Positions 400 to 45,592 of a stretch of 51,986 bases of DNA are shown piece after piece. The position numbers and the translations under genes are program-made. The stretch comes from a virus. The first letter of the stretch is position 1, and each line of letters begins with the position of its first letter. The stretch spans positions 1 through 51,986 of IMG/VR virus record IMGVR_UViG_3300047409_000500; one strand, given 5' to 3'. The notes under the pieces were generated by a model. It saw nothing but the letters and a program-made list of their open reading frames with translations, was not told the origin of the DNA and did no database searches.

Positions 400-747
400 T
401 TACTTGCCCCCCGCGATCTTGTACGTGCGCACGCCTTCAACGCTGGTCGATTCGATTGTGTGGGTCTTGCCCAGGATGCTCATGAATCCCCGCACCGTGT
501 GACGCTGCCATCCGAATCGCGTCATGAGGTCGTCTAGGGCGATTCCCTTTTTCAGTAGTTCGATCGCCTCGCCCTTTTTCGTGGTTCGGGGCGTGGGGGC
601 GGTCGGTGCGGGGGCGGCCTTGGCGGCCTTGGCGGGGGCGGCCTTCGTGGGGGCGGCCTTCGTGGGGGCGGCCTTGGCGGCCTTACCCTTGGGGGCGGCC
701 TTTTTCGTGGCGGCCTTCGGGGCGGTGTTCTTTTTCGTCGATTTCAT
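400..747 (-). CDS. DUF3489 family protein with Ala/Lys/Pro-rich H1-like tail
   Basis: This 115-residue protein has two parts. Residues 1-55 are almost only Lys, Ala, Pro and Thr, in short repeats such as KAAPTKAAPTKAA, like the tail of histone H1. The C-terminal 60 residues carry the small winged-helix-like DUF3489 domain, with a GWQRHTVRG core and a final VEGVRTYKI strand. I chose the ATG at 747 because an AGGA-like site precedes it; the frame upstream lacks coding character. DUF3489 has no settled function. A DNA-binding or nucleoid-like role is inferred from the basic tail and the helix-turn-helix-like core. The gene stands alone, with its own leader at 748-1086. Confidence 0.85.
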   Translation of the reverse strand: MKSTKKNTAPKAATKKAAPKGKAAKAAPTKAAPTKAAPAKAAKAAPAPTAPTPRTTKKGEAIELLKKGIALDDLMTRFGWQRHTVRGFMSILGKTHTIESTSVEGVRTYKIAGGK

Positions 748-16873: not shown

Positions 16874-16890
16874 AGTAGGATCTTTCCGAA

Positions 16891-16919
16891 GGGGCGGCCT
16901 CCGGGTCGCCCCTTTTTTT
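16891..16919 (+). terminator. Strong intrinsic terminator of the integrase gene
   Basis: A nine-pair stem (one G-T pair) formed by GGGGCGGCC and GGTCGCCCC with a four-base TCCG loop (16891-16912) is followed by seven T residues. It lies 17 bases after the integrase stop. Confidence 0.92.
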
Positions 16920-17004
16920 AATCCTTGCGTCGTCCAGCCAGACCGAATCGTGCCAAACCATGCCACACCACACTAAGCCCAATCTAGCCTTGCCAAGTCC
17001 TACC
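16920..17004 (-). repeat. Pentanucleotide array C (short, perfectly phased)
   Basis: Read on the minus strand this is about 17 consecutive five-base units, most beginning GG, such as GGTAG, GACTT, GGCAA, GGCTA, GGTGT, GGCAT, GGTTT and GGCAC. All are in one register. It abuts the integrase terminator. The remaining gap to 17128 holds GC-rich hairpins (GGGGGG/CCCCCC around 17061-17083; GGGGC/GCCCC at 17121-17138 around the next stop) and no gene. Confidence 0.75.
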
Positions 17005-17128
17005 GTGACCCGCCTTTTTCCGTTTATGGGGGCCGCCATAGGCCCGCCGGGGGCGTAGGGGGGCGACGGTTCCCCCCTGCCACCCACGGAGGCCGCCACG
17101 GGGCGGAAACGGGCCGCCATGGGGCAAT

Positions 17129-17383
17129 TTATCGCCCCGTGCGGCGGTACGCATTCTGTTGATAAACCCGCCGCGCCACCGATTCAGGAATGCGCAGGGA
17201 CACATAGGCCCGCTTGCGATTCTTCGTCAGTTTGCCGACCCCGAATTTGATTACGCCCGGTTCGTTGGCAAACCACTTGCGCAGCATTCGGGTGGACATA
17301 TGCCACGCTTCGGCCAGCTGCGCAATCGTGTAATGTTGCTCCAGAAAATCGGGGCGGTCGGTTTCCATTGGTTCCGCCATCAT
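17129..17383 (-). CDS. Helix-turn-helix DNA-binding protein
   Basis: The 84-residue protein reads HYTIAQLAEAWHMSTRMLRK, then WFANEPGVIKFGVGKLTKN, then KRAYVSLRIPESVARRVYQQ. This is the excisionase/MerR-like helix-turn-helix with a beta wing, followed by an LRIPESVA tail common in Acidobacteriota proteins I remember. It starts at the ATG at 17383, overlapping the previous stop, with GGAGGAGATACCAATC upstream. It is the last gene of the recombination operon and next to the integrase, so it is a candidate directionality factor. Confidence 0.85.
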   Translation of the reverse strand: MMAEPMETDRPDFLEQHYTIAQLAEAWHMSTRMLRKWFANEPGVIKFGVGKLTKNRKRAYVSLRIPESVARRVYQQNAYRRTGR

Positions 17384-17646
17384 GATTGGTATCTCCTCCT
17401 TGCCTCGCCATCGGGATATTCCTGCAGCGTCACCCCGGCCCGGGCGAGGTCGTCTTCCAGCTGCGCTAGATTCTTCGGGAAGGTTTCGTTGTGATCGTGA
17501 TGCAGCACCCAACACAGGACGTCCAGGTTGTGCATCATCGTCGCCTGCGTGTTGGGATCCACGGTCTGCCCCGTGACGGGATCGAGCAGCACTAGGGACA
17601 ACAGATCGTGCGCCCGTTGGATCTCGGCCTCGGTGCGTATCGTCAT
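17380..17646 (-). CDS. Hypothetical 88-residue protein
   Basis: The protein is helical, beginning MTIRTEAEIQRAHDLLSLVL, with a LDVLCWVLHHDHNETFP segment and an acidic helix (LAQLEDDLARAG). I recall a similar small phage protein built round a HDLL ... CWVLxH pattern but no function. The ATG overlaps the upstream stop (ATGA). Confidence 0.75.
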   Translation of the reverse strand: MTIRTEAEIQRAHDLLSLVLLDPVTGQTVDPNTQATMMHNLDVLCWVLHHDHNETFPKNLAQLEDDLARAGVTLQEYPDGEARRRYQS

Positions 17647-17762
17647 CGCTGCCCCCACCAGGGCTGCGCGTGGCGCTGGTCGTCGCGGCGGCGGCGCGAA
17701 GGCCGCCGGGCGAAGAAGACCAACACCAGGAAACTTCCGATTACAATCGCCGGCAGTAACAT
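17643..17762 (-). CDS. 39-residue membrane peptide
   Basis: The peptide begins MLLPAIVIGSFLVLVFFARR and continues with a very basic stretch (RPSRRRRDDQRH). One transmembrane helix followed by positive charge predicts a small N-out or signal-anchor protein. AAGGAGTGGGACTG lies before the ATG, and both ends overlap neighbours (TGATG, ATGA). It could be a holin-like, exclusion or regulatory microprotein. Confidence 0.6.
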   Translation of the reverse strand: MLLPAIVIGSFLVLVFFARRPSRRRRDDQRHAQPWWGQR

Positions 17763-17938
17763 CAGTCCCACTCCTTCGTTAAACGTGCCCGCCATTCGGT
17801 GAGCAGTAGATCGGCAGCGTTCGCGGCCATCGCCACGGCCTCCTCGACCGTGGCCTGTGTTTCCGTCGCCAGGATCGCGCCGAGGGCCGTCACAGCGGCG
17901 CGTTCCCAAAAGTCACGCTCGGGATCCTTCTTATTCAT
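17762..17938 (-). CDS. Hypothetical 58-residue helical protein
   Basis: The protein begins MNKKDPERDFWERAAVTALG and is helical throughout (ATVEEAVAMAANAADLLLTE). Its ribosome site overlaps the end of pentamer array A: the array's last units (GCAGA, GGCAA, GGC) run into the ATG at 17938. Function unknown. Confidence 0.7.
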   Translation of the reverse strand: MNKKDPERDFWERAAVTALGAILATETQATVEEAVAMAANAADLLLTEWRARLTKEWD

Positions 17939-17941
17939 AAG

Positions 17942-18758
17942 CCTTGCCTCTGCCCGCCATAACCCGCCCAACCCATCCTGCCCGGCCTCACCGATTCACG
18001 CCTCGCCTTACATGGCCGACCCCGACCTCGCCTGCCCGGCCAATCCCGGCCAATCCCGGCCACGCCTAAACATGCCTCGCCTGCCGCGCCTCGCCGCCCC
18101 AGGCCCGACCTTTGCTCTACCTGCCAAACCCCGCCTGCCTCGCCATACCCACCCCGATCCGACCTTGCAATATCGCGCCAAACCTGATCACGCCGCGCCT
18201 GCCTTGCCAGCCCCCGCCTAACCTCGCCGATCCGCACCTAAGCAGTCCTAGCCTGCCGCCCTCCACCGGATCGCGCCGGGCCTACCATGCCCAACCTTGC
18301 ACCGCCTGCCCAACCGCGCCATCCCCGGACTCGCCAATCTCCAACGCTCCATCCCACACCCCGCCATACGATGCCAGCCCAACCCTTCCGGGCCAGCCCC
18401 GCCGAGTCGCTCCTAATCCCACCGGGCCGACCGTACCGGGCCTGCCAATCCGCGCCCGTTCTCCCCGTTCCAAGTCGCGCCATCCCAACCCTTACCGAGC
18501 CTGCCTCGCCGTACCCGGCCCGGCCCGTCCAACCGTCTCCCGACCCAACCTCGCCTGCTATGCCCCGCCGTCCCGGATCGGACCCGTACAAGCCGTGACT
18601 CATCCAGCCCGACCGACCCACGCCGTGCCTGCCGTGCCGCGCCTTGCCTACGCTGGCCGTGCCATGCCGTAGCCCCCCCGTACCACGCCTGCCAATCCCC
18701 GCCAGTCCTTGCCTGGGCCGACCGCACCTAATCTCGCCGTACCAGGGCCAGCCATGCC
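17942..18758 (-). repeat. Pentanucleotide array A (long, degenerate GGYNN)
   Basis: About 815 bases between two leftward genes consist of GG dinucleotides every five (sometimes four or six) bases on the minus strand. Common units are GGCAT, GGCAA, GGCGA, GGTAC, GGATT, GGCGC and the four-base GGCA. The sequence is open in several frames on both strands, and the predicted peptides are RG/WQ-rich low complexity, so it is almost certainly not coding. No gene is present in this stretch. It would be transcribed as a G-rich RNA in the early operon. Confidence 0.85.
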
Positions 18759-18764
18759 AGAGCT

Positions 18765-19247
18765 TTACGGCACCGCATCGTCGCCGCTCAAATCGGGCGG
18801 CGGCGGCCGGTGCCCATAATTTCGCGCGGCTCTTTCGATTGCGGCGAACACGCCAGCCAACTCTGAAAGCTGGAAGTACTTCACCTTTAGGCGATTCAGT
18901 TCATCCAGTGCATCGGTCAGCATTTGCGCGCGTTCGGATGGGGCCGCCAGCACTTGCGCCATAACGCGATACCCGCCCCCGTCAAGCTGCCGATCCGGTG
19001 TCAGGCTGATGAACGCTCTTACTTGGTAGTGGGGTTCATCGTGCGGAAGTGTCTCCACGGTGACGCGAATTAATTGGCGGGCCTGTTGCAGCCGCCACTG
19101 GTGGGCGGCCAGCCCATCGTCCCACTGGAAGTAACCGTGGAGAGGCGAGTCGGGGTGACTCGCCTCCGCAATTACATCAGCCGGACGCAGCAGCCCGTAC
19201 ATCGCTTGAATGCGATATAGCTCCTGTACCACGTCGATTCTTGGCAT
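18765..19247 (-). CDS. Conserved phage protein, unknown function
   Basis: The 160-residue protein contains YGLLRPADVIAEASHPDSPL, HGYFQWDDGLAAHQWRLQQA, RQLIRVTVE and RAFISLTPDRQ. This is a motif chain I know from many phage early regions, where it is always hypothetical. The C-terminal third is helical (LSELAGVFAAIERAAR). It lies between arrays A and B with the gene at 19254, 6 bases upstream. Confidence 0.82.
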   Translation of the reverse strand: MPRIDVVQELYRIQAMYGLLRPADVIAEASHPDSPLHGYFQWDDGLAAHQWRLQQARQLIRVTVETLPHDEPHYQVRAFISLTPDRQLDGGGYRVMAQVLAAPSERAQMLTDALDELNRLKVKYFQLSELAGVFAAIERAARNYGHRPPPPDLSGDDAVP

Positions 19248-19253
19248 TTTGTT

Positions 19254-19991
19254 TTACCCCAGTGCAACACGATCTATCAGTTTCGTTGCCACGGCATTGT
19301 TGAAGGATTCGTTGCCGTTGGTCTTTTCGATTTCAAACAGTCCCCAGCCCATTCCGGCTGAGTGCTTACTGTCGGGACGCCCCTCGCAGATACCAACCTG
19401 CTGGCCCACCCGCGCCAGCAAGTTAGTCACGTCCTCGAGGGTGAATTGATCGGCATCCCACCGGATGCGCGCGACCGCCGTCCAGTTGTGATAGGCCGCG
19501 CGCACGGTGACATACGGCTGCCCGGTTTCGACACGCGCCATATCCGCCTGCTTGACGGGAGTCGCGTCGCAAATTCGGATCAGCGGGATCTGTGGTTCCT
19601 CGGCATCGACGCCGTCCTTCTCGACGAAGACGGAGAGCTTGGCGAGGACCATTTTGAAGTCCACCAAGCGGCACGCTGAAATCAAGGCTTTCCGAAGCGA
19701 CCCCGCGTGAAAGCCATCCCACCCTTCGCGGCTGATGTATCGCGCCTCTTTGAAAGTCTGGTCCGTGTCCTTCGGTTCCCGATTCTTCTTACTCGACGCT
19801 GCCTTGCCCGTTTCCATCTTTTCTTGCATCTGGTTCTTGAGTTTGGCGCTGAAGCGATGAATTACCAGCGGGCAATCCTCCATGCCGATCAGCTTGAAAG
19901 ATGCATGTTGAAAGTTCACCGGACGGATGTTAATTGTCTTGGATACGGAAGTCTTCGTACCCGCTTCGTTTGCGTTTTTTTGAGTTGCCAT
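19254..19991 (-). CDS. Conserved phage protein next to recombination genes
   Basis: The 245-residue protein has FKLIGMEDCPLVIHRFSAKL, EARYISREGWDGFHAGSLRK, PLIRICDATPVKQADMARVE and a C-terminal LLARVGQQVGICEGRPDSKH. I recognise this layout from phage early operons, often near recombination genes, as a protein of unknown function. TAGGAGGGTTGCT precedes the ATG. It is bracketed by arrays B (upstream) and A (beyond the next gene). Confidence 0.82.
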   Translation of the reverse strand: MATQKNANEAGTKTSVSKTINIRPVNFQHASFKLIGMEDCPLVIHRFSAKLKNQMQEKMETGKAASSKKNREPKDTDQTFKEARYISREGWDGFHAGSLRKALISACRLVDFKMVLAKLSVFVEKDGVDAEEPQIPLIRICDATPVKQADMARVETGQPYVTVRAAYHNWTAVARIRWDADQFTLEDVTNLLARVGQQVGICEGRPDSKHSAGMGWGLFEIEKTNGNESFNNAVATKLIDRVALG

Positions 19992-20051
19992 AGCAACCCT
20001 CCTAGATTGAAATTTCTTTCGTTTTTGCCGGGTCGAAAGATAGCCCCGGTT

Positions 20052-20592
20052 TGTTTAGCCAAGCAATGCCGAGTCCCGCCATGTCATGCCTCGCCGTTCC
20101 CAACCTTGCCTGCCATACCTCGCCCAATCGCTACATGCCTAACTGCTACATCCCAGGCCGCCCGAAACGAGACGCACCAAGCCTGCGGTTCCCTGCCCAA
20201 TCTTTCCGACTCGCCCATTCCATAACGCGCCCCGCCCCGCCGTGCCTGCCGGGCCAGCCCAGGCCAATCCCGACCTTGCCCCATCAGTCCTTCCATGCCG
20301 ACTCGGACCAAACCTGCCAGCCCGCGCCTCGCCCCATCGCGCCGCGCCTCAACTTGCCGTCTCGCCCCAAGCCCCGCCGACCCTTGCCGTGCCAAGCCTG
20401 CGAGTCCGATCCCTGCCGCGCCATCGCTTTCCAGCCGACATCGCGCCGAATCGCGCCCTGCCTGCAACGCCGAACCTCAACCAGCCCGGCCCCCAACACA
20501 ACGTGCGGCACCACGCCGAACCAATCCCCGCCTGCCACGCCACGCCCCGACGTGCCCCGCCTATCCTCGCCCCAACTCGCCGTGCCCATCTC
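20052..20592 (-). repeat. Pentanucleotide array B (long, degenerate GGYNN)
   Basis: About 540 bases upstream of the gene at 19254 have the same minus-strand pattern as array A: GG at roughly five-base spacing in units such as GGCAC, GGCGA, GGATT, GGCGG, GGCTT and GGCA. The stretch 19992-20051 is an ordinary AT-richer leader with the ribosome site of the next gene. No gene is present. ORFs across it are low-complexity shadows. Confidence 0.83.
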
Positions 20593-27168: not shown

Positions 27169-30100
27169 TTACGAATAACTGACGATGACGCCTCCACGCA
27201 CGACGATCTGTAACGCGCCCACGTTCGCCCCGTTGATCCACAGTTGCAGCGGATTTCCGGCGTTGTCGTGGAAGGCGATGGTATAGTCCTGTCCGGTGAG
27301 GCCCGTGGGGTTGAAGCCCGAGCCTGTGACCTTCCCGGTTGCCGTGATGGTGTTGTTGCTGGAAATGATGCCGCAGTCGATCCGGTTGGATCCCGCGTTG
27401 ATCGGTCCACAAGTGATCGACTGATTGTTGGTGGTGATTTGCTGGCAATTGAGCGTGCCTGGACTGATCACCATGCTGGATGCGCCGACCGCCCCGAGCG
27501 TGGTCTGCCCCGTCACACTCAGCGTGCCGGATAGCGACAAGGAGTTCATCGAGAGCGTGCCGCGAATAAACACGGCCCCGGCCCCATCCACCGAAAAATT
27601 CAGATTGCCCGAACCGTCGCGCAGGCTGAAGGTGGCATTGCCGTCCGCCGCCGATCCGCTGTCCAGCTGCACGTTGATGTTGCCGCTGGCGGGCGAGTAC
27701 ATCGTCAAGGTGCCCCACCACCAGTTGCGGGTCGCGTCGTTCCCTTTGGGGTCGCCGTTGAAGCTGACGAGCGCCGCGAGGCGTCCCTGCTGGCCGCCCA
27801 CATTGTTAGGGCCGCGCAGGATGATCCCGCGATTGATGATGGCGATGCCGTGCTTGGGATTGTTTACGGTGTCGTAGTTGGTCCGGTAGAGCGAGAGGCC
27901 GGGGAACTTGTAATAGCTGCTGTCGGATGGATTGTCGGTCACGAACGCCGAGAATCCATACTCCAGCCGCATCGCGGCGTTCGTTGGATTCGTGGCGGTC
28001 GGGTAGTTCGCCTGATAGTCGATGGTGAAGCGGGTAATTTGCCGCATCTGCACCGTCGCGCCCAGGGGGTCGGTGGCATCCTGCTTCGCCAGCATTCTCC
28101 AATCAGTGAAGGTCTGGCCGCCGTACGCAAACTCTTTGAACCACGCCCCTTGGATGGATACCTCCGGTCCTCCCTGGTTGCCTGTGGCGGCATAGCCGAT
28201 CCTGGCCCCGATCCGGCCCACTTCCGTATTCGCGTTGTCGCGGATCGAGATGTAGGGATAGCGGGATCCGGCCATCTCGAAACCGCCGATGATGACGGTC
28301 CCGTCCTGCTTCGCGTAAATCGGCGCGTTGGTGGGGTTGTCGCCGCCGACGTATAGCTCCTGCATCCAGCCGCCGAAGATCGAGTGCGCGGCGGGATTGT
28401 CCGGGGTGCCTCCGGTCTGCTGGCCGATCCAGCCGCGCAGGACGTTCGAGGCATTGTAGACGGCCACCTGTCCGTTTTCCATGCCTTTGAACAGGCCCGC
28501 GTTGCCCACGGTGGAAGGCCCGCCGCCGACGCGCAGGATCGATCCCACGAAAATCTTAGGGGCGATAATCTGCTCGACCGTGAATTTGGCCGGGTCGGCG
28601 GGCCAATCGAATTCGGCCTCGTTGAACCAATCCCTCGGCATTCGGGACGCCAGCACGTTTCCCACGATGGGAGTGAACGCGGGCGGCGTCACCTTCGGCG
28701 TGGTTCCCGGCAGAATCGTATTGCGATGCCCTGTCATATCCCGGCTGACGAAATAGAAATCCCAGGTGCGGGCCGCCGGGGCGGGCTCCCAATCGGTGGT
28801 GAAGCTGGTCGCGTTCTTCGGCACATCCCACCACGTGGGATCCGCCGTCTGCCCACTGATGACCCGCGCAATCGACATCCCGCCGAAGAGGTTGCTGGTG
28901 GGATTCTGCCACGTGCCGATTTGGTGGCGCATCATCACCACGCCATCGGAATTCAGTTCCTGGACCGTCGTTACCGTGGTGCCGCTTGCGCCGCCAGCGG
29001 GCGCGTATTCGAGGCCGTTGCCACCCAACGCGGGCGGCCCGATGTTCCAGGTGACGCGCGGGGTGTTGACGCCCGGGTTTGCCGGATCGTCGCTCGGCCT
29101 GCCCTGGTCGTCAATCGAGATCGCGACGATGGTCCACGCCTCGGCCACCTTCGGCCAGTCGATGATCTCCAGTCCAATCGAGGTGATGTTGGCGGGCACG
29201 CGCGGCTTCATCAGGCGCGGCGGCGTGACCCCGGTGCGATAGAATTCCACGCCCTTATAGCGTGGCGAGGCGGGCACGGTCCAGGTGAGAGTCGCCCTCG
29301 CAAGGTCGGTGCCATCCGGCTGCGGATCATGGATGTAGTTCGTTAGGGCGAGGCCCGTGACGTAGGGCGCGGTGGGCTGGCCCACGGGAGGGTACACGAT
29401 GGTGACGTCGATCATTGGCGTCACGCCCTTAACGATGGTGTTGCGCCGCCCATCGACATCGCGGGAGCAAAACCAGACTTTGAAGTGACCGCCCAGGCCC
29501 GCCTCGTAGCTGCCGCTGTGCCAATCGTCGGGCTTATTGACATCGAGGAACAGCGCTTCCTTGCGGGTGCCGTCGTCGTATTCGTATACCGTCATCACGC
29601 CGCCGAAGGCGCGCAGCCCGGGGGGCAGCGGAATCGCCGGATCGGGAGCGGTATAGCCGAACACCAGCGAGTACATCGGCCCCGCCGGATTGGCGAAGTC
29701 CTGAACCACCGTGATGTGGGCACCCGTGACGATCCAGGCATACTCCTGGCCGCTGACGTACTGCCCGGCGGCGGCGGGGATGGTGACGACCGCGCTTGGC
29801 GTGGGGGGCGGTTTGTTGGCCCGCACCAGGGTCGCGTTCTTGACGGTGCTGAACGCTTGCACATAGACCCGGATGGCGCGCGCCTTCGGAGCGCCGTTCA
29901 CGGTGATGAGGGCCGGGGGCTCAAAGTCATCGGTGATGTGGACCGGAGCCCACTTACCGGATACCTGGCTGGTTCCATCGAGCGGGATGCTGCCGTCCAT
30001 GGGCGCTTCGTTAGACGAACTGATGTCGGGATCTTCCAGGTAAATCCCCACGCCCACGGTGGGGGAGCCCGCGCCCGGCGACCAGTCAATCGTGACCTCG

Positions 30101-44251: not shown

Positions 44252-44695
44252 TTAGCTGGCCTGGATGCGCCGCCCTTTGGGTACGAAGCTCAGAACCCGC
44301 AGGGCTTCCGCCGCCGCCGTGTCCTGATCGCCGCCCGTGCCGAGTCCTACGGTCGGATTGTTGAGCCGCTTCATCTCGGTTTCGAGGGCATTGGCCGCTG
44401 CCGGGGCCGGGGCCGCCGCCGCCGCAGCCGGGGCCGCCTTGAGGATCCGCCGCACGGTATCGACGTCGTGATTGGTTTCGAGGGCCAGGGTACGCGCGAG
44501 GTTCTCGCGGCCTTGCGCTTCCTCGCAAGTCAGAATCGCCGTGATGCGCTGACGGTCGGCGCTGACGGGATCGGGTGGGGCCGCCGCCGCCGGGGCGGGA
44601 ACGGGCGCGGGTGGGGCCGGATTAGGGGTCGGAGCCGCTGTTGCAGCCGGGGGTGCGGCGGGCGCGGGCGGATCGGTTCGTATAGGGTCGGACAT
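44252..44695 (-). CDS. Nested scaffold protein (lambda Nu3-like), internal start
   Basis: An in-frame ATG at 44695 (residue 300 of the protease) is preceded by AGGAGGCACCT, a strong ribosome site embedded in the coding sequence. The product (147 residues, MSDPIRTDPPAPAAP ...) would be Pro/Ala-rich and helical at the end, like the lambda C/Nu3 arrangement. Initiation there has not been shown. The site and the known precedent support it. Confidence 0.7.
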   Translation of the reverse strand: MSDPIRTDPPAPAAPPAATAAPTPNPAPPAPVPAPAAAAPPDPVSADRQRITAILTCEEAQGRENLARTLALETNHDVDTVRRILKAAPAAAAAAPAPAAANALETEMKRLNNPTVGLGTGGDQDTAAAEALRVLSFVPKGRRIQAS

Positions 44696-45592
44696 AGGTG
44701 CCTCCTGGGACGATCTGGCGGCCGGAGCCGCATTGCTGAGAAACGGAATCGGACGGGCGTCGGTGGTAGCGAGGCCCGCAATCAAGGGTTCGAAGCTGCC
44801 GAGCGCATCGGCCATTCCGGCGGCGATGGACTGCCGTGCCGGCACAATCGCGCCGCGCCCGAAATCGCTGGTCACGCGGTCGGCGGTCGTGCCCCGGAAT
44901 TGCGCCACGCGCCCGATGAAGAGGTCGGCCAGCGAGTCGGCGATCTTGCTCAACTGCGCCCGGCCTTCCTCGGTGCGGATGTCGGTACGCTTCAGGGGTG
45001 ATTGGGACGAAACAATCTCGTACCGCCTCACCCCCTGGCGTTCCTGGGCATCCCGGTTGTCGGTAACGGAGACGACGACCCCGATGGATCCCAAGAAGGC
45101 GCTCTCGTTGGCGATGATCCGCGAGGCCGCGGAAGCCACCCAGTAGCCGCCCGAGGCCGCGAGGCCATCGACGTAAGCGGTAACGGGCTTCTTGGCCGCC
45201 CCGGCGCGGATTTGATCGGCGAATTCGTTGATGCCGTCCACCTGACCGCCCGGCGAATTCACATTCAGCACGATGTGCGATACGGATGGGTTGTCGACCG
45301 CCGCCTTGAAGTCGCGCGCCAGATTCTCAATCGACGTCGCGCCGCTGATCTCGGTGAACACATTCGCATAGCGGAATAGCGGCCCCTCGACGCCCAACAC
45401 GGCCACGTTGCCATGCATCTCGACCCGGCCCCCGGTGTTTTCCAGGGGTTTGCCGATGCGCGCCACCACGGCCTCCACGTCGCCGCTTGACCGCTCCAGG
45501 ATTTCGAGGATGGTATTCATGCCGCCGTGGGTAATCGCCCACGGCCGCTCTTGAATCTCGGCGAGGATGTGCAGTAGGGATCGATTTTTCAT
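44252..45592 (-). CDS. S49-type prohead protease (lambda C-like)
   Basis: The 446-residue protein carries an S49 signal-peptide-peptidase fold. Ser147 lies in GLAASGGYWVAS, and Lys201 in SSQSPLKRTDI supplies the general base. HIVLNVNSPGGQVDGI is the oxyanion region. Residues 285-400 are Pro/Ala-rich and disordered. It processes scaffold and portal during head maturation. The nested scaffold begins at residue 300. It overlaps the portal gene by 4 bases. Confidence 0.9.
   Translation of the reverse strand: MKNRSLLHILAEIQERPWAITHGGMNTILEILERSSGDVEAVVARIGKPLENTGGRVEMHGNVAVLGVEGPLFRYANVFTEISGATSIENLARDFKAAVDNPSVSHIVLNVNSPGGQVDGINEFADQIRAGAAKKPVTAYVDGLAASGGYWVASAASRIIANESAFLGSIGVVVSVTDNRDAQERQGVRRYEIVSSQSPLKRTDIRTEEGRAQLSKIADSLADLFIGRVAQFRGTTADRVTSDFGRGAIVPARQSIAAGMADALGSFEPLIAGLATTDARPIPFLSNAAPAARSSQEAPMSDPIRTDPPAPAAPPAATAAPTPNPAPPAPVPAPAAAAPPDPVSADRQRITAILTCEEAQGRENLARTLALETNHDVDTVRRILKAAPAAAAAAPAPAAANALETEMKRLNNPTVGLGTGGDQDTAAAEALRVLSFVPKGRRIQAS

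What the first reader, a model, noticed from the sequence alone, without database searches (positions are those of the whole stretch)
16920..20592. Three degenerate pentanucleotide (GGYNN) arrays embedded in the recombination operon
Arrays C (16920-17004), A (17942-18758) and B (20052-20592) have GG at five-base steps on the transcribed strand, with variable third to fifth bases and occasional four-base units. They occupy about 1.4 kb of a compact genome, always in gaps between leftward genes, and bracket two conserved phage genes near RecT and YqaJ. The units vary but the period is kept, so selection seems to act on spacing more than on sequence. Possible roles: G-rich RNA (two-layer quadruplexes), a binding platform for a phage or host protein, a recombination hotspot feeding YqaJ/RecT, or a selfish expanding repeat. 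I have seen similar RG/WQ-rich shadow ORFs in other phage annotations but know of no described function.
Basis: partly seen in the sequence, partly recalled or inferred. Interest (0 to 1): 0.85.

Follow-up and report, generated by a model that had tools for sequence, protein, structure and literature searches.

The report
Phage VIPR guide-RNA arrays and effector
The odd five-letter DNA arrays in this phage are almost certainly the guide-RNA arrays of a VIPR system, a CRISPR-like RNA-guided mechanism that phages use against competing phages; it was first described in a 2026 preprint, and this copy adds clues about how the guides are divided and replaced.

Summary
The periodicity is real. Arrays A and B carry GG every 5 nt on the transcribed (minus) strand, far beyond shuffled sequence; array C is short but also significant. 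The gene between B and A (X, 19254-19991) explains them. Searching IMG/VR with the DNA pattern alone, 78 of 104 contigs with degenerate arrays encode an X homologue, nearly always beside the array, while plain GG microsatellites in bacterial genomes lack it. AlphaFold models X as a RAMP (Cas7/Csm3) protein. X-family profiles match the SUSP1 Vipr gene lying between SUSP1's own GGY arrays, and PDB 36pp, 'SUSP1 Vipr protein'. So this is a VIPR locus (PMC13142463): X = Vipr, gene Y (18765-19247) = likely Vap, arrays = vrRNA guides. The 'occasional four-base units' are not sloppiness: mostly GGCA, about 54 nt apart, they cut the arrays into modules of typically 8-13 repeats, the published guide size. 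GGCA punctuation and Y are co-inherited in one Vipr clade that excludes SUSP1. In cultured mycobacteriophages whole modules are gained and lost. I found no target for the window's guides, so RNA-guided silencing by this copy is inferred. Known kind; new member with a possibly undescribed punctuation code.

The parts
19254..19991 (-). Gene X: Vipr, RAMP-family (Cas7/Csm3-like) protein, 245 aa; presumed binder of the GGY repeats
   Evidence: AF2 pLDDT 89.3; PDB best matches Csm3/Cas7 chains, Z 11.5, 148 aligned, rmsd 3.6; family profile hits SUSP1 Vipr gene E 2.2e-39 and PDB 36pp 'SUSP1 Vipr protein' E 1.9e-36; profile of window clade alone hits SUSP1 Vipr E 1.2e-5; phrog_4652 unknown function
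18765..19247 (-). Gene Y: probable Vipr-accessory protein (Vap), 160 aa
   Evidence: Same-strand companion of X in 34 of 40 window-clade loci and 56 of 124 X loci; present beside X in Cy-LDV1, Saal, Ecliptus and UmaThurman; AF2 pLDDT 92.4 but only weak winged-helix-like PDB matches, best E 0.53
20086..20586 (-). Array B: GGYNN vrRNA array, 11 segments delimited by GGCA-type 4-nt units
17939..18758 (-). Array A: GGYNN vrRNA array, 17 segments delimited by GGCA-type 4-nt units
16920..17004 (-). Array C: short GGYNN array (about 16 repeats), probably one vrRNA, followed by a terminator-like hairpin
   Evidence: 0 of 2000 resamplings as good
16887..16919 (-). GC-rich inverted repeat just 3' of array C, terminator-like (read from sequence)
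   Evidence: sequence; not tested with a terminator model

Best explanation
The locus is a phage-borne VIPR (Viral Interference Programmable Repeat) system. Leftward transcription of arrays A, B and C yields guide RNAs (vrRNAs) made of GGY-NN repeats. Vipr (gene X), a Cas7-like RAMP, is expected to bind one GGY per protomer along the RNA and display the NN dinucleotides, which pair with double-stranded DNA leaving one target base unpaired between dinucleotides; binding silences genes of competing phages or prophages. In this lineage the guides sit in continuous arrays punctuated by a 4-nt GGCA unit, each module of typically 8-13 repeats being one guide, and gene Y is the co-inherited accessory protein. 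Shown here: periodicity, modular punctuation, RAMP fold, homology to SUSP1 Vipr, linkage of array and gene, variability of NN. Inferred from the preprint: vrRNA production, RNA binding, the 1-nt skip, silencing. Inferred by me: GGCA marks guide boundaries.
For: 78 of 104 contigs with degenerate arrays, found by DNA pattern only, encode X; 3 of 16 contigs with less degenerate arrays do; of 80 bacterial-genome loci, nearly all plain microsatellites, only L177 and L183 do. X models as a Cas7/Csm3-type RAMP. The X-family profile matches the SUSP1 Vipr gene between SUSP1's GGY arrays and PDB 36pp; profiles without SUSP1-like rows still match it, E 1.2e-5 and 1.5e-12. Published vrRNAs have 9-16 YNNGG repeats; modules here peak at 10. 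In relatives G1/G2 are 85-93% conserved, position 3 is a pyrimidine in 79-93%, NN is near random. Arrays also flank X homologues in cultured Mycobacterium, Gordonia and cyanophages. Vipr is 99-100% identical among cluster F phages while modules differ; all four distinct substitutions are in NN. NN composition fits codon positions 1-2 better than the other codon phases.
Against: No convincing target of the window's guides was found, and the 1-nt skip rule did not stand out against controls in the DNA at hand. Window units are more degenerate than in other relatives (both Gs in 78% of units), so some guides may be decayed. No conserved 3' tail was identified. Y could not be matched to a named Vap because the preprint's supplement was not readable. 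Pairwise, window X against SUSP1 Vipr is only E 0.69; homology rests on profiles.
Confidence: 0.92

Rival explanations
1. The arrays are a VIPR relic: genuine vrRNA arrays descended from a working system but decaying in this phage.
For: Window units have both Gs in only 78% of cases against 94% in cultured phages; several modules are short (2-7 repeats).
Against: Vipr and Y are intact, with family-typical lengths and good models; the whole window clade has similar degeneracy (79%), which suggests a looser consensus rather than decay.
Confidence: 0.12
2. The arrays act in cis as G-rich RNA or DNA: two-layer quadruplexes, R-loops or a recombination hotspot for RecT/YqaJ.
For: G-rich transcribed strand, period 5 compatible with GGN3 quadruplexes; RecT-like and YqaJ genes nearby.
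Against: Does not predict a pyrimidine third base, GGCA punctuation, module turnover or linkage to a RAMP gene. A 281-nt piece of array A folds no better than shuffles, z -0.24 (the folding program does not score quadruplexes).
Confidence: 0.03
3. The arrays are translated repeats or a selfish expanding microsatellite.
For: Long shadow ORFs cross the arrays; public records annotate ORFs in homologous arrays.
Against: A 5-nt period with 4-nt breaks keeps no frame; NN is near random; true microsatellites in bacterial genomes mostly have 1-3 unit types and no X.
Confidence: 0.01

Closest known systems
VIPR system of Escherichia phage SUSP1 (type II; PMC13142463, doi 10.64898/2026.04.26.720920; PDB 36pp)
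   Same: RAMP-family Vipr gene flanked by GGY/NN repeat arrays; phage-borne; profile homology of X to SUSP1 Vipr.
   Different: The window's Vipr falls in a different clade; its guides lie in long continuous arrays punctuated by GGCA rather than as separate ~100-nt vrRNAs with structured tails; Y has no homologue at the SUSP1 locus held.
VIPR loci of cluster F mycobacteriophages (Saal, Quico and others) and Gordonia phages (Ecliptus, ODay, UmaThurman, Pipp)
   Same: X homologue, GGCA-punctuated GGYNN arrays, and Y where checked.
   Different: Cleaner repeats, 34-71 units in the arrays read, and a short invariant last module in the mycobacteriophages.
Class 1 CRISPR Cas7 / Csm3 backbone proteins
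   Same: RAMP fold (Z about 11); periodic binding along a guide RNA, for X by analogy only.
   Different: No CRISPR repeats, no cas genes seen nearby, 5-nt instead of 6-nt period; about 10% sequence identity.

Membership tests
VIPR | Vipr protein: RAMP fold related to CRISPR RAMPs | tested here: met
   AF2 model pLDDT 89.3; Csm3/Cas7 chains fill the top of the PDB list
VIPR | Sequence homology to an experimentally studied Vipr | tested here: met
   SUSP1 Vipr gene E 2.2e-39; PDB 36pp E 1.9e-36; window-clade profile alone E 1.2e-5
VIPR | Tandem GGY/NN (YNNGG) repeats flanking vipr | tested here: met
   on both sides of genes X-Y
VIPR | 9-16 repeats per vrRNA | tested here: met
   Modules between GGCA units: mode 10, mostly 8-13 across the clade; about 18 modules of 8-16 in the window; that a module equals one vrRNA is inferred
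VIPR | Phage or prophage location | tested here: met
   G000 is a virus record; integrase, RecT-like and YqaJ-type genes; terminase-like gene with 80 viral relatives
VIPR | Accessory vap gene | tested here: inconclusive
   Y is a conserved same-strand companion; identity with one of vap1-6 could not be checked
VIPR | Invariable structured 3' tail after the repeats | tested here: inconclusive
   None seen in the window; mycobacteriophage arrays end in an invariant short module
VIPR | Guides match dsDNA targets under the 1-nt skip rule | tested here: inconclusive
   No significant target in the loci, IMG/VR pattern scans or 401 genomes tried
VIPR | vrRNA transcribed and bound by Vipr | not testable with these tools
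   needs RNA-seq and pull-down
CRISPR-Cas class 1 | Array of identical repeats with unique spacers, plus cas genes | tested here: not met
   No such tandem repeats in the region; no Cas family among nine neighbouring proteins

The most novel reading that the evidence does not exclude
One Vipr lineage, co-inherited with accessory protein Y, uses a built-in 4-nt GGCA unit in otherwise continuous GGYNN arrays as a boundary or processing code that delimits each guide, and phages gain and lose whole guide modules at these marks, much as CRISPR arrays turn over spacers.
Probability: 0.5. Interest if true: 0.75.

Novelty: new member of a known kind. Interest (0 to 1): 0.6.

Why it matters
It shows without prior knowledge of VIPR that degenerate GGYNN arrays lead straight to Vipr, an independent check on a very recent claim about CRISPR origins. 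It places VIPR loci in well-studied lab phages of Mycobacterium smegmatis and Gordonia, where arrays are now misannotated as ORFs, giving tractable systems. The GGCA punctuation and its co-inheritance with Y suggest how long arrays are divided into guides and raise the open question of how phages acquire new guides.

Tried and rejected
(1) Targets of window guides: exact 8-unit 1-nt-skip patterns in IMG/VR gave 1, 22, 8 and 3 hits, none extending convincingly past the 8 units used. One hit (L329) lies just upstream of a terminase small-subunit-like start in a phage sharing the window's terminase, but among 34 chance-level hits this is not evidence. (2) Guides of all loci against all loci, skips 0-3 with reversed controls: no clear excess for skip 1. 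(3) Window guides against 80 terminase relatives and all VIPR loci: no excess; the apparent excess came from pre-selected loci. (4) A guide shared by Saal- and Quico-type phages in 401 genomes of the family around Nocardia locus L208: 2 hits with one mismatch, against 1 in the control. (5) DNA BLAST of array A against phages: no match, as expected for degenerate repeats. (6) Rfam: nothing in the window. (7) PADLOC: no match to X or Y. (8) Y against PDB sequences and folds: nothing significant. (9) 44521-44700 on the plus strand also scores for GG period 5 but lies in a coding stretch. (10) Before finding the preprint I considered TRAP-like rings and RecT filaments; the RAMP fold replaced both. 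(11) The careful tree did not finish; the quick tree was used.

Full report
Observation. On the minus strand the three arrays show strong GG recurrence at multiples of 5 nt. A chaining score gives 202.8 for A and 99.7 for B; ten order-1 resamplings of the window never exceed 13.8. Array C is short but beats all 2000 resamplings of its own sequence. The consensus is G(96%) G(82%) Y, then two near-random bases. The arrays lie in the gaps between leftward genes, 3-7 nt behind stop codons for A and B.

Two searches joined array and gene. First, homologues of gene X (19254-19991): nearly all of 40 IMG/VR loci carry a GG array close to X, with one exception on the same strand. 78 of 104 contigs with degenerate arrays encode X; of 16 contigs with less degenerate arrays 3 do; of 80 bacterial-genome loci, nearly all plain microsatellites, only L177 and L183 do. 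Some contigs without X end at or near the array. Arrays begin a median of 13 nt after the upstream gene, usually a same-strand gene.

What X is. AlphaFold2 on 113 window and locus sequences gives pLDDT 89.3. The best solved structures are CRISPR Cas7-type RAMPs, chiefly Csm3, Z 11.5 over 148 residues at 3.6 A. X is phrog_4652, unknown function, with no Pfam or PADLOC match.

Known system. A literature search found PMC13142463 (bioRxiv April/June 2026): VIPR, a phage-encoded ancestral RAMP (Vipr) with guide RNAs of 9-16 YNNGG repeats that recognise dsDNA through the NN dinucleotides with one skipped target base, repressing competing elements; seven types, with 'staggered arrays with overlapping vrRNAs' among the architectures. 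Membership was tested directly. In the SUSP1 genome the GGY pattern lies at 27619-27966 and 29170-29231, and the X profile hits 28492-29079 between them, E 2.2e-39. The profile also hits PDB 36pp, 'SUSP1 Vipr protein', E 1.9e-36. Because those profiles include SUSP1-like rows, I rebuilt them from the window clade alone (E 1.2e-5) and the GGCA clade (E 1.5e-12); the match holds. Single-sequence comparison is not significant (E 0.69).

Gene Y (18765-19247) is a same-strand companion of X in 34 of 40 window-clade loci and 56 of 124 X loci, and sits beside X in four cultured phages. Its model is confident but only weakly winged-helix-like in comparisons. I call it a probable Vap.

The four-base units. 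Among 4-nt steps, GGCA makes up 341 of 507 counted and 359 of 535 in a second count, although only 23% of 5-nt units begin GGCA. Breaks peak 54 nt apart, giving modules of typically 8-13 repeats, mode 10. The unit after a break has the best-conserved GG, 100% and 97%. GGCA punctuation and Y go together: 47 of 58 punctuated loci have Y, 3 of 52 others do. On a quick tree 57 of the 58 punctuated rows fall in one 66-row clade (support 98) that excludes SUSP1; shared ancestry therefore explains much of the association. A few clade members use other constant breaks, such as GGCGTTCA in L064.

Turnover in cultured phages. Cluster F mycobacteriophages have Vipr proteins 99-100% identical. ByChance lacks one module present in its relatives; Quico and Florinda share one module core and the invariant last module with the others but differ in the rest; the four distinct single-unit substitutions are all at positions 4-5. 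Public annotation calls ORFs across these arrays.

Function. Steps shown: array, gene, fold, homology, modular structure. Steps inferred from the preprint: vrRNA production, Vipr binding, 1-nt-skip recognition, repression. I could not find targets for the window's guides. Available DNA was limited and the host is unknown, so this neither supports nor refutes targeting. NN composition fits codon positions 1-2 best among coding phases (KL 0.070 against 0.119 and 0.310), weakly in line with coding targets whose wobble base is skipped, although a simple independent-base model fits better still (0.022).

Verdict. The arrays are vrRNA arrays of a VIPR system. The kind is known; this is a new member, in a clade with GGCA-punctuated arrays and accessory Y. 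Whether the punctuation is already described in the preprint's supplement could not be checked.

Noticed in passing
L309-L320 (mycobacteriophage records): Public annotations place small ORFs, or an extended Vipr start, inside the vrRNA arrays (for example Gorge gp53, DRBy19 gp51, Philus gp52, Florinda 59). These are probably not genes.
   Followed up: partly
L150 1956-3547: Array of about 325 units with a recurring insert GCACGGGAGCAGCAGCATCCGGCGYAAAGGGATGGAC; could be a tail, promoter or ribozyme between guide sets.
   Followed up: no
L145 4429-5229, L045 637-1197, L148 4600-5047, L064 1995-2353: Other array architectures: short runs separated by 30-60 nt spacers, or a different constant break (GGCTAATGGGT, GGCGTTCA).
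   Followed up: no
L329 5133-5155: Exact 8-unit 1-nt-skip match to a window array A module just upstream of a terminase small-subunit-like start, in a phage sharing the window's terminase. Chance is not excluded.
   Followed up: partly
window 592-722: Tandem repeats of 15-57 nt (GGCGGCCTT-rich), apparently coding an Ala/Lys-rich stretch on the minus strand.
   Followed up: no
L177, L183: The X-bearing degenerate arrays among the bacterial-genome hits lie on contigs binned as Fibrobacteres and Patescibacteria; possibly prophage or viral contigs.
   Followed up: no
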